NCBI GenBank assembly: GCA_017474515.1
Contig: JAFVHN010000035.1
Location: 1-55,262, forward strand
Direction of reading: 5' to 3'
Source of the DNA: Prevotella sp.
Lineage (GTDB): Bacteria; Bacteroidota; Bacteroidia; Bacteroidales; Bacteroidaceae
DNA: 55,262 nt
The notes beneath the pieces are model-generated. The model was given only the letters and a program-made list of their open reading frames with translations. It made no database searches and was not told where the DNA came from. The stretch's first letter is position 1. Each line of letters starts with the position of its first letter. The position numbers and the translations under genes were made by a program. Shown piece by piece: positions 6,375 through 55,051 of the stretch.

Positions 6375-6603
6375 AACTTTTTCAAGTTGATGTAGTTCAG
6401 GAGTTACAGTAGTTCAGGAGTTCAGACATTACTTCCGACCTCTGCCGACTGATGGAAATGGAGTTTTCAGAACTATTAAGTTTGAGTTATGAGTTATGAG
6501 TTTTTGCTGCCGTGCATAATTCATAACTAAGAATTCATAATTTAAAAGCATTTTATCTCCTGTAACTCCCGAACTACTGTACTCCAAGAAGTTGAAACTT
6601 GAA
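6375..6603 (+). repeat. GTTCAGGAGTT inverted-arm element, copy 1, with nested insertion
   Basis: The left arm (6375-6427: TCAAGTTGATGTAGTTCAGG...) and right arm (6557-6603: ...CTCCAAGAAGTTGA) match the arms of the copy at 8572-8722, as does the core (ACCTCTGC, TTTTCAGAACTATT versus CCTTCAGAACTATT). Between core and right arm, 6480-6556 holds a separate ATGAGTTATGAG/CATAATTCATAAC module absent from the other copy, which suggests insertion of one repeat into another. Confidence 0.75.
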
Positions 6604-7961: not shown

Positions 7962-8193
7962 TAAAAAATCGTTTTAATTCCCCTTGGCGGGTAAAATTGA
8001 TGCCTGTGTTGACAAGTTGAAGGTGTTATGTCGGCCCGTCTTTGTATTTTCATGCATTTCTTTTATACATGAAAAATGCTGCTACAGGCTTTGGAAACAA
8101 GCGAAAACGGCGTTGAAAAAGACACTCGCATAAATATATATCGTAGGATTAAAGATAACAGGTTAATTCATAATGTCTTAACATGTGAAAAGC
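7962..8193. other. Intergenic DNA without recognisable gene
   Basis: AT-rich spacer between the BspA promoter and the tandem-repeat element. The only structure noted is a short TTTTCATG...CATGAAAA inverted repeat around 8048-8079. Confidence 0.6.
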
Positions 8194-8306
8194 GCAGTCC
8201 TACTTTAAGTCGTCTTGAAGTAGGACTGCAGTCGGATGCGGTTTGGACTGGAGTCGGATGCGGTTTGGACTGGAGTCGTTTGCGGTTTGGACTGGCGTTA
8301 TTTTGG
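8194..8306 (+). repeat. 22-bp tandem repeat with terminal hairpin (locus A)
   Basis: A perfect 12-bp inverted repeat (GCAGTCCTACTT 8194-8205, AAGTAGGACTGC 8218-8229) encloses a 12-nt loop. It is followed without gap by 22-bp units at 8225-8246, 8247-8268 and 8269-8290, sharing GCGGTTTGG and ACTGGAGTCG, plus a partial fourth to about 8306. The same element is present inverted at 51571-51671, and a rearranged form at 37091-37179. Confidence 0.9.
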
Positions 8307-8571: not shown

Positions 8572-8722
8572 AACTTTCTCAAGTTGATGTAGTTCAGGAG
8601 TTACAGGAGTTCAGGAGTTCAGACAACACTTCCAACCTCTGCAAACTGACGAAAAGGGAGCCTTCAGAACTATTGTCTGAACTCCTGTAACTCCTGAACT
8701 CCTGAAACTCCAAGAAGTTGAG
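8572..8722 (+). repeat. GTTCAGGAGTT inverted-arm element, copy 2, in the nuo leader
   Basis: A left arm of ~53 bp (8572-8624) and right arm of ~48 bp (8675-8722) are imperfect reverse complements built of GTTCAGGAGTTACAGGAG-type units, separated by a ~50-bp core. If transcribed from the promoter at 8492-8522 it would fold into a long stem about 40 nt before nuoA. Confidence 0.8.
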
Positions 8723-18882: not shown

Positions 18883-18885
18883 TAA

Positions 18886-18976
18886 GTGAAGAGTGAAGAG
18901 TGAAGAATGAAAAGTGAAGAGTGAAGAGTGAAAAGTGAAGAGTGAAAAGTGAAGAGTGAAAAGTGAAGAGTGAAGA
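18886..18976 (+). repeat. Heptanucleotide tandem repeat (GTGAARA), 13 units
   Basis: 91 bp made of exactly 13 in-phase heptamers, mostly GTGAAGA or GTGAAAA with one ATGAAAA. It starts 3 bp after the nuoN stop. Shorter arrays of the same unit lie at 1293, 1621, 2696, 51412, 54921 and 54971. Confidence 0.92.
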
Positions 18977-24257: not shown

Positions 24258-24690
24258 TTTACCACGGAAAAACATGTTTTTTCAACCACGGATGAACACG
24301 GAATTATTTCAACCACGGATGGTGTTTTTTTACCACGGATGAACACGGATTGACACGGAATTTTTGCGGATTTGTAATGAATGCGTAGGGACATACTTTA
24401 TGTATGTCCGAAAAAAGGCGTGATGGCATGTCATCTTTTGAGGCGTGCGGACATACATAAAGTATGTCCCTACACCGGAATCATATAAAGATGGAAATCC
24501 GTGAAAAAGTCCGTGTCATTCCGTGTTCATCCGTGGTAAAAAACATCCGTTGTTTAAAAAAAGTCCGTGTCTGTCCGTTTTCTTCCGTGGTAAAAAATAC
24601 CATCCGTTGTTTTAAAAAGTCCGTGTCAGTCTGTGTTCATCCGTGGTTAAAAGTACACCCGTGGTTAAACAAAGACCATCCGTGGTAGAA
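24258..24690. repeat. Concentric inverted repeats (CCACGGATGAACACGGA family around GGGACATAC palindromes)
   Basis: The left block (24261-24359) carries CCACGGATGAACACGGA units. The right block (24498-24680) carries the same units inverted; 24332-24359 and 24510-24537 are complementary at 27 of 28 positions. At the centre, 24385-24410 and 24447-24473 are inverted copies of a GTAGGGACATAC...GTATGTCC palindrome. The whole region can fold back on itself. No gene is present. Confidence 0.8.
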
Positions 24691-36835: not shown

Positions 36836-37090
36836 TATTTGCTCTTTTTTCTTTTTCCTTCATTCTTTTTTCCTTTTATTTCAGTTCCGTGTAAAGGCAG
36901 CGATGTACCTAAATATGACAAATAACAAGGCGTGGGCAATGCCAAGGAAAGGGAGCAGAAAGGAAAGTTTATGCAAAAACATCCATGATTTTGCATAAGG
37001 TTGATTTCCATATTGTTTTTGAGTTGGAAAAATGGTTGTTAATGCGCTGTCTTTCAGCACATTCCTTAACCCTGAGTTGTAGTCCGGCCC
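36836..37090. other. Gene-free AT-rich spacer
   Basis: No coding sequence or strong structure noted between the secreted-protein operon promoter and the tandem-repeat element at 37091. Confidence 0.6.
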
Positions 37091-37179
37091 AGTCCTGGCC
37101 GCAAACGACTGCAGTCCAGACCGCAAACGACTGCAGTCCTAACCGCAGAAGGACTGGAGTTTTTTGCGGTCTGGACTGG
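37091..37179. repeat. 22-bp repeat element, rearranged copy (locus B)
   Basis: Units at 37091-37112 and 37113-37134 share CCGCAAACGACTGC. A third, diverged unit (37135-37157) carries its own AGTCCT/AGGACT hairpin. A fourth unit (37158-37179) is inverted (GCGGTCTGGACT) and pairs with the second at 18 of 20 positions. The units match those at 8225-8290 at about 20 of 22 positions in reverse orientation. The 12-bp hairpin found at loci A and C is not intact here. Confidence 0.8.
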
Positions 37180-37255
37180 CTGCATTTACCATTTTCTTGC
37201 AAGAATGTATATTCTTCCATTTCTGGTACACTCTGCCATGCTGCGAGCCTGTCTT

Positions 37256-37338
37256 AGGAGCCGACGCTTCCAAGCGTCGGAACAACCGCAAGTCCGTAAC
37301 CCGCATTGTCGGTCCATCGCTCATAGGCGTCGGCTCCT
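37256..37338. repeat. Nested hairpin upstream of the HtrA gene
   Basis: Outer arms AGGAGCCGACGC (37256-37267) and GCGTCGGCTCCT (37327-37338) are exact complements. The left arm also forms an inner 9-bp hairpin, CCGACGCTT/AAGCGTCGG (37261-37280), so two alternative pairings compete for the same bases. Confidence 0.75.
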
Positions 37339-37517
37339 TTTCCCATGCTCAGCACCCGTCGCGAAAGGTTTCTTCGGGAAAATTAATATGAATTTCCTTA
37401 GTGAAATGAATGTAAAAAAACTTTAGAAAGCCGCAAATATGTTTTAATTGTGAGGCTGATTGTGTTAAAAGAGGACAAAAGGAAATGACAAAATGACAGT
37501 TTTACATTTTTTGCGTC

Positions 37518-48539: not shown

Positions 48540-48785
48540 AAAACTAAAATACATTTTTAGTTATGAATTATGAGTCATGAATTATGAGTTATGAGTCATG
48601 AATTATGAGATATGAAATATGAGATATGAGATATGAGTTATGAGTTATGAGCGGCAGCCTTTCGCTTGCGGACGTGATACATCACGTCCCTACATGAGGC
48701 GGGGGATGGCGGCAGCAAGATCTTCACTCTTAGCCCACCCCCGGCCCCTCCCGTAAGGAGGGGAGCCTTTGGGCCTCACTTTTTT
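48540..48785. repeat. Intergenic repeat mosaic between DPP IV and mutS2
   Basis: No gene. In order: ATGAATTATGAGTCATGAAT-type repeats (48560-48650); GCGGCAGCC; a 36-bp palindromic element (48668-48703) of the GGACGTGATACATCACGTCC type; GGCGGCAGCAAGATCTTCAC (an inverted heptamer/GCCGCC module); and an inverted C/G-rich element (48733-48778). The mutS2 stop lies 7 bp further on. Confidence 0.8.
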
Positions 48786-51400: not shown

Positions 51401-51411
51401 CGAAATTTAAA

Positions 51412-51460
51412 GTGAAAAGTGAAAAATGAAAAGTGAAAAATGGAAAGTGAAAAGTGAAAA
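51412..51460 (+). repeat. Heptamer array GTGAAAA, 7 units
   Basis: 49 bp of in-phase heptamers (GTGAAAA, ATGAAAA, ATGGAAA). It lies immediately upstream of the mutS2 -7 box in the minus-strand sense. Confidence 0.88.
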
Positions 51461-51570: not shown

Positions 51571-51671
51571 CAGTCCAAGCCGCATCCTACTCCAGTCCAA
51601 GCCGCATCCTACTCCAGTCCAAGCCGCATCCTACTGCAGTCCTACTTAAAGACGAATTAAAGTAGGACTGC
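51571..51671 (-). repeat. 22-bp tandem repeat with terminal hairpin (locus C)
   Basis: Three 22-bp units (51571-51592, 51593-51614, 51615-51636), identical except for the last base, read CAGTCCAAGCCGCATCCTAC then TC/TG. They run directly into GCAGTCCTACTT (51636-51647), a 12-nt loop and AAGTAGGACTGC (51660-51671). This is the inverted form of the element at 8194-8306; the hairpin arms are identical and the loop differs at only 2 of 12 positions. Confidence 0.9.
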
Positions 51672-51901
51672 GTTTTTCCTGGGTTAAAACATTATATAAC
51701 ATCTTGTTATCATTAAAATTCCAGCGTATATGATAGAGAAGGTTTTCATCAATGCCAATTTCGCTTGTGTCCGCTAAGTATGGGAACATATTTTATCTAT
51801 GTCTGAAACGCCAGATTTTTCCTCTTTTCCGTGAACGATTTCCGGCAAACTGTGTATGCAATTTCAGAACAACAATTACGTTAATCTAAAAAAACACTGA
51901 A
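51672..51901. other. Gene-free spacer
   Basis: No coding sequence. A degenerate GGGAACATATTTTATCTATG (51784-51803) resembles the GGGACATAC palindrome family but has lost symmetry. No clear promoter box before the gene at 51902. Confidence 0.5.
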
Positions 51902-54911: not shown

Positions 54912-54920
54912 ACGAAAAAA

Positions 54921-55051
54921 GTGAAGAGTGAAGAGTGAAGAGTGAAAAATTTGCTGCCGCCATTAAAAAAGTGAAAAGTGAAAAAGTGAAAAGTGAAAAA
55001 TTTGCTGCCGCCATTCCCGCCTCATGTAGGGACGCGATGTATCGCGTCCGC
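54921..55051 (+). repeat. Repeat mosaic: heptamers, GCTGCCGCCAT blocks and 36-bp palindromic element
   Basis: GTGAAGA/GTGAAAA heptamers (54921-54948) then TTTGCTGCCGCCATT; the same pair repeats at 54971-55015. A 36-bp element with GGGACGCGATGTATCGCGTC follows (55016-55051), the inverted sister of 48668-48703. The rest to 55195 is non-coding, with an inverted GGCGGCAGCAAATTTTTCAC block at 55102-55121. Confidence 0.82.

What the first reader, a model, noticed from the sequence alone, without database searches (positions are those of the whole stretch)
8194..8306. 22-bp tandem repeat capped by a 12-bp stem / 12-nt loop hairpin: a candidate undescribed element (locus A)
Three and a half 22-bp units run directly from a perfect 12-bp hairpin, and the right arm of the hairpin merges with the first unit. 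22 bp is about two helical turns, so each unit would present the same face to a protein. The same architecture occurs inverted at 51571-51671. An ordered tandem-plus-hairpin structure with conserved arms suggests a functional site (protein-binding array, structured RNA end, or REP-like mobile unit).
Basis: partly seen in the sequence, partly recalled or inferred. Interest (0 to 1): 0.78.

Follow-up and report, generated by a model that had tools for sequence, protein, structure and literature searches.

The report
Dispersed 22-bp repeat-array element
The finding is one copy of a small non-coding repeat, built from phased 22-base units, that is scattered about 40 times through this bacterial genome, mostly between genes, and has relatives with the same anatomy in some other bacteria of its family; how it spreads is unknown.

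Summary
The window holds two copies of one element (8155-8294 +, 51571-51710 -) and a third array of another arrangement (37090-37178). The whole genome holds about 41 arrays. The main form is a conserved 40-bp 5' module plus a 100-bp array: a 12-bp half unit and four 22-bp units. 18 of 40 arrays measured are exactly 100 bp. Copies lie mostly between genes, with mixed orientation.

Arrays with GGACTGNAGT repeated every 22 bp occur in 8 of 398 other sampled genomes of the family and in 0 of 387 outside it. The unit interior is species-specific, but the half-plus-four plan recurs in another genus.

No tie to a RAYT was found: the only Y1 transposase detected is flanked by a different, GTAG-tagged REP, and three array-bearing genomes had no Y1 match. 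The units fold no better than shuffles and the cap shows no covariation, so a structured RNA is not supported.

Best reading: a non-autonomous dispersed element carrying phased protein-binding sites, copied by an unidentified enzyme. Neither binder nor enzyme is shown. The closest described kind found is BrickBuilt of Porphyromonas; six paper searches found no description of this family.

The parts
8155..8194 (+). conserved 40-bp 5' module (ATAAC...)
   Evidence: 19 class A copies align without gaps; information content drops to background upstream of -40
   Evidence: the half-unit reading is mine, supported
8229..8250 (+). 22-bp unit
8251..8272 (+). 22-bp unit
8273..8294 (+). 22-bp unit
51571..51670 (-). 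second copy, 100-bp array (three 22-bp units and the 34-bp cap)
51671..51710 (-). 40-bp 5' module of the second copy
37090..37178 (.). third array (class B), 89 bp: units of 22, 22, 23 and 22 bp with the unit orientation reversed within the array; no 34-bp cap

Best explanation
This is one copy of a non-coding, non-autonomous dispersed element found mostly between genes. Its constant part is an array of a half unit (11-12 bp) and four 22-bp units, in which the word GGACTG-N-AGT recurs every 22 bp, about two helical turns, so that the sites face the same side of double-stranded DNA. Shown: copy number, recurring anatomy, species-specific amplification, relatives in other genera, and absence at some orthologous sites. 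Inferred: the array is read as duplex DNA by a protein, and the element is copied as a whole by an enzyme supplied in trans that is not the RAYT found. Unit number then changes by whole units, as by slippage.
For: About 41 places in the own genome (40 after merging rows, plus one and the window's third array, less one probable contig-end duplicate). 19 class A copies share one 5' module and cap. Core-to-core distances are 22 bp in 73 and 23 bp in 14 of 96 in 40 own-genome loci. 18 of 40 arrays are exactly 100 bp; 12 of the 19 arrays that are neither 99 nor 100 bp differ from 100 by a multiple of 11 within 1 bp. In G226, 7 of 9 arrays with hand-chosen ends are 99-100 bp, the others 55 and 111 (3 of the 12 loci shown were not measured). 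The single array of G916 reads as 34+22+22+22 with a drifted core (my reading). Exact 22-bp pattern in 8 of 398 other sampled family genomes with 0 in the reversed-pattern control, 0 of 387 outside the family. Locus L016: of 10 genus genomes for which both flanking genes appear in a capped list, 7 leave 19-67 bp between them, too little for the element, against about 260-270 bp here. G226 shows no array at 4 of 7 G357 array loci compared. GGACTG stays while its would-be partner inside the unit differs between species (AGTCC, AGTCG, AGTTT, AGTTC, AGTGT), as expected for a word read in duplex DNA rather than a stem.
Against: No exact empty site with clean ends or target duplication was found: flanks in relatives are diverged, and the empty sites lack more than the element; 3 of 10 L016 gaps (138, 138, 733 bp) decide nothing. 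No enzyme or binding protein is identified. Units in G364 have palindromic interiors, so a hairpin role cannot be excluded there. The 5' module of class A copies was not seen (by eye) at class B copies, which are four-unit arrays of 89 bp with an inner reversal, so the two classes may not move as one unit. One search required GGACTG in its pattern, which excludes compensated units; the less constrained support is the class A alignment. 2 of 38 arrays (L028, L044) overlap the end of an ORF of more than 300 aa.
Confidence: 0.5

Rival explanations
1. REP/BIME-like repeat moved as single-stranded hairpins by a RAYT (Y1) transposase.
For: Palindromic half-sites, dispersed copies, tandem and inverted arrangements.
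Against: The only Y1_Tnp found in the own genome (genome 88% complete) is flanked on both sides by another palindrome, GTAGGGACATAC...GTATGTCC, as inverted pairs, which is also in the window at 24389-24469. Of 8 other array-bearing genomes searched, 3 (G226, G199, G232; 91-100% complete) gave no Y1_Tnp match at E 0.001, and the 15 Y1 loci in the other 5 had no array beside them; L074 has one lone core word far from the gene and L080 one CAGTCC..GGACTG hairpin that looks like a terminator. Arrays of G357 that could be oriented show no clear replication-strand bias, 7 of 11 (assigned by hand; replichores estimated from 20 samples with noisy skew).
Confidence: 0.1
2. A regulatory array: operators of a DNA-binding regulator kept by selection beside its target genes.
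For: Fixed 22-bp phasing and a conserved near-palindromic word GGACTGNAGTCC across genera. In class A, the left neighbour points away from the element in 12 of 18 called cases, a weak bias.
Against: No Pfam family matches more than one of 61 flanking proteins. Orientation to neighbours is mixed: 8 divergent, 6 convergent, 21 tandem of 35 loci with both neighbours called (simple ORF rule). Arrays are patchy between species and missing at some orthologous sites.
Confidence: 0.15
3. Recombination site: arrays are places where a recombinase, or homologous recombination, joins chromosome segments.
For: At 2 of 5 G357 loci tested the two flanks lie on different contigs in a relative, and each flank still has its own array there (L054 in G199; L089 in G226).
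Against: Small number; draft assemblies can be misjoined at repeats; ordinary recombination between repeats would leave the same mark.
Confidence: 0.12
4. Structured non-coding RNA or transcription terminator.
For: The cap folds strongly, z = -7.3, and carries the whole element to z = -3.9 on either strand (-3.1 for the second copy).
Against: The 22-bp units fold no better than shuffles (z = 0.30); the cap shows no covariation and about half of the copies lack the inner stem; no Rfam match at gathering score; mixed orientation to genes.
Confidence: 0.06

Closest known systems
BrickBuilt MITE of Porphyromonas gingivalis (PMC4596501; outline, sections 5, 8, 9 and part 1 of 2 of section 7 read)
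   Same: Tandem 23-nt units inside a non-coding intergenic element with flanking modules, 19 copies in one genome, restricted host range, no transposase inside.
   Different: BrickBuilt has 1 to 22.8 units, a leader and tail with IS5-type terminal inverted repeats, and by the paper's searches occurs in P. gingivalis and P. gulae. Here the unit is 22 bp, arrays are most often 100 bp, relatives cover six genera of one family, and the TIR word GAGACCTTTGCA with up to 2 mismatches occurs in the window 3 times, none at the arrays, fewer than the mean of shuffles. The unit sequences were not compared letter by letter (not in the text read).
REP/REPIN-RAYT systems (PMC6006769: passages; PMC3733652 and PMC3116915: search listing only)
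   Same: Short dispersed palindromic repeats amplified within a species.
   Different: No GTAG tag seen and no linked Y1 gene found; this genome has a separate GTAG-tagged REP next to its Y1 gene (the meaning of the GTAG tag is from the listing of PMC3733652 and recall).
Iteron or multi-site transposase-binding arrays (recalled: R6K iterons, Tn7 and Mu ends with 22-bp sites)
   Same: Several sites of about 22 bp in helical register.
   Different: Dispersed single arrays, not ends of an element, and no shared gene family beside them. Recalled lead, not tested.

Membership tests
REP/REPIN with RAYT | cognate Y1 (RAYT) gene flanked by the repeat | tested here: not met
   Own genome (88% complete): one Y1_Tnp, flanked by another repeat. 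Other genomes: 15 Y1 loci, none flanked by arrays; 3 of 8 genomes without a Y1 match
REP/REPIN with RAYT | GTAG or similar tetranucleotide at the foot of a conserved hairpin | tested here: not met
   No such constant tag in the 19-copy alignment (by eye); hairpin interior not conserved
MITE (including BrickBuilt) | terminal inverted repeats of an IS | tested here: inconclusive
   ATAAC at the 5' end and GTTAT just past the 3' end in a few copies only; no BrickBuilt-type TIR at the window's arrays; no other IS ends looked for
MITE (including BrickBuilt) | target site duplication / clean empty site | tested here: inconclusive
   Some orthologous sites lack the element but with ragged ends
MITE (including BrickBuilt) | multiple non-coding intergenic copies | tested here: met
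   About 41 arrays; 36 of 38 examined do not overlap an ORF over 300 aa, though many overlap shorter, probably spurious ORFs
Known structured RNA | match to an Rfam family | tested here: not met
   0 matches at gathering score for window and four loci

The most novel reading that the evidence does not exclude
The 100-bp array is a conserved architectural module of this family of bacteria: a landing platform of four helically phased binding sites for one unknown protein. Protein and array co-evolve, so the spacer is replaced in each species while the core word and the half-plus-four plan stay, and the protein both copies the array and recombines chromosomes at it.
Probability: 0.2. Interest if true: 0.75.

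Novelty: new variant of a known kind. Interest (0 to 1): 0.5.

Why it matters
Small dispersed repeats are common, but as far as I recall their movers are known mainly for REP/RAYT and IS-derived MITEs. Here the unit step (22 bp), a recurring total length (100 bp) and a 10-bp word are kept between genera while the rest is rewritten in each species, and the only RAYT found in the same genome sits among another repeat. That makes a specific, testable gap: which protein reads GGACTGNAGT every 22 bp. Arrays also lie at two apparent breakpoints and beside or inside IS insertions, so they may shape genome order.

Tried and rejected
RAYT link: tested and not met. The CAGTCC..GGACTG hairpin beside L080 was looked at and set aside as a terminator between convergent genes (my reading). 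Structured RNA: Rfam, folding of the units and covariation of the cap negative; the cap itself does fold. Viral and plasmid carriage: no pattern match in viral contigs, no plasmid match; the phage collection was not searched. Empty sites: flanks of 9 G226 arrays against G357 gave mostly matches to other repeats and no clean empty site. Function by neighbours: no Pfam family matches more than one of 61 flanking proteins (25 of 76 families shown). Replication-strand bias in G357: 7 of 11, no clear bias; three sites of unclear orientation (near 1392570, 1441557, 2238478) were left out, and the assignment was made by hand. Literature: searches gave no description of this repeat in their listings; BrickBuilt is the nearest. 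A GACT-N2-AGTC dyad resembles C-boxes of restriction controllers (recalled, not tested).

Full report
What is there. The array at 8195-8294 consists of a 34-bp cap and three 22-bp units; I read the cap as a 12-bp half unit followed by a first 22-bp unit, so the array is half a unit plus four units. A copy in the opposite orientation lies at 51571-51670, and a third array of 89 bp (22+22+23+22), with unit orientation reversed inside it, at 37090-37178. Upstream of the cap a 40-bp AT-rich module is conserved without gaps in 19 copies; mean information content is 0.82-1.16 bits per column there and 0.28-0.38 further out.

Copies in the genome. BLAST of the element finds 67 rows in the own genome (3.51 Mb in 118 contigs, 88% complete). 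After merging I count 40 places; a cap pattern adds one (C96) and the window's third array another, and one pair (C117, C2) is probably one locus at contig ends: about 41. This is likely a lower bound, since the search scored 40 of 54 candidates. 38 loci were examined for neighbours with a simple longest-ORF rule. 36 do not overlap an ORF of more than 300 aa; L028 and L044 overlap the end of one, and many overlap shorter ORFs (72-218 aa) that I take as spurious. Element-relative orientations were -++ 8, -+- 11, +++ 10, ++- 6, with 3 lacking a called neighbour. Among 18 class A loci with a called left neighbour, the left gene points away in 12, a weak bias. Two copies with related flanks (L002 and L012) have four and two units after the cap.

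Length. In 40 loci of the own genome the array, measured from first CAGTCC to last GGACTG in a cluster, is 100 bp in 18 and 99 bp in 3; the three of 99 bp are class B arrays of 89 bp plus an extra GGACTG 10 bp on. Of the other 19, 12 differ from 100 by a multiple of 11 within 1 bp (67, 67, 78, 89, 89, 110, 111, 111, 122, 133, 133, 166) and 7 do not (16, 28, 60, 72, 94, 94, 116); decayed arrays are cut short by the exact-word rule. Distances between core words in a nearly identical set of 40 loci are 22 bp (73), 23 bp (14), 32-34 bp (8) and 56 bp (1).

Relatives. The exact pattern GGACTGNAGT-N12-GGACTGNAGT occurs in 9 of 399 sampled genomes of the family, own included, in 6 of 30 genera; the reversed-pattern control gave 0. 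In an order-wide sample of 393 genomes only the own genome matches; 387 of these are outside the family. A stricter pattern found 3 named records in genome contigs: RUG192 (Prevotellaceae), Candidatus Bacteroides intestinipullorum and Bacteroidaceae RGIG1935. As a whole the element matches none of 59 other genomes at E 0.001, 35 of them of the same genus. In genus g37 a looser pattern matches 10 of 60 sampled genomes: four with many matches (G357, G199, G226, G919), five with one site, and one (G912) that I take as chance; the control matched in 4 genomes with 1-2 hits. In that genus the arrays read as an 11-bp half unit plus four units, or a 21-bp first unit plus three 22-bp units, and in several the third unit ends in AAAACTG, AAAACAG or GGACAG (my reading). 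In G226, 7 of 9 arrays with hand-chosen ends are 99-100 bp. The single arrays of G916 and G442 read as 34+22+22+22 and 22x4 with drifted cores; G100 and G915 share one locus with a single unit. One site is shared by G199, G898 and G919 at 88-91% identity; G898 keeps 55 bp of it, and in G919 the last unit is cut by an IS-like end.

Movement. Locus L016: for 10 genus genomes both flanking genes appear in the capped list, with gaps of 23, 19, 25, 28, 32, 67, 58, 138, 138 and 733 bp against about 260-270 bp in the own genome; 7 cannot hold the element, 3 decide nothing. Of 7 G357 loci compared with G226, arrays are present at 3 (L066, L086, L089) and not seen at 4 (L054, L087, L088, L105), three of these with one flank aligned only; G199 does have an array beside the same gene at L087 and L088, and none was seen at L105. 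Exact ends were not obtained. At L054 (in G199) and L089 (in G226) the two flanks lie on different contigs, each beside its own array, which suggests rearrangement at arrays; assembly error is not excluded.

Form. GGACTG stays while the facing letters differ between species (by a pattern that fixes GGACTG; one search shows it without that constraint for the units of class A). The three-unit stretch folds as DNA at -4.3 kcal/mol, shuffles -4.7, z = 0.30; the cap alone has z = -7.3 and the whole element z = -3.9. On 18 distinct caps 78.6% of cells pair, shuffles 78.4%, with one double change. So the outer half-sites are kept, not the inner stem.

Not tied to a RAYT found here, not a known RNA. 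See the membership test.

Conclusion. The data support a dispersed non-autonomous element with phased sites. That a protein reads them and an enzyme copies them is inference. The family fits the broad class of small dispersed repeats; the half-plus-four architecture shared between genera is what seems new, as far as the listings of six repeat-directed paper searches show.

Noticed in passing
L031:1354-1896 with REPs at 1219-1307 and 1946-2076; window 24389-24469: The only Y1 transposase found in the genome is flanked by inverted pairs of a GTAG-tagged palindrome GTAGGGACATACTTTATGTATGTCC; the same pair of palindromes lies in the window: it looks like a RAYT/REPIN system.
   Followed up: partly
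L061, L085, L086, L111 (G357), L100 (G226), L195 (G919): A similar IS end lies inside or within about 30 bp of arrays (L195 by eye only); the L086 ORF matches integrase core domains (rve), so arrays may be IS targets.
   Followed up: partly
window 18885-18976, 48559-48651, 51409-51460, 54915-55015: Arrays of 7-bp units (AGTGAAG, AGTTATG and relatives).
   Followed up: no
window 8591-8711, 1484-1514, 1676-1706, 6394-6425: 8-bp AGTTCAGG-type arrays, at 8591-8711 as two arms in opposite orientation.
   Followed up: no
window 24504-24674: 56-bp tandem repeat with CCGTG words (TRF score 219).
   Followed up: no
window 37255-37340: Palindrome GCCGACGCTTCCAAGCGTCGG; related words stand beside array L038.
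   Followed up: no
G357, query stretches: Other short repeat families in the flanks hit many places in G357.
   Followed up: no
class B arrays, e.g. L027, L029, L044: A further GGACTG lies 10 bp past the array end, as (A/G)G(C/T)CGGACTG.
   Followed up: no
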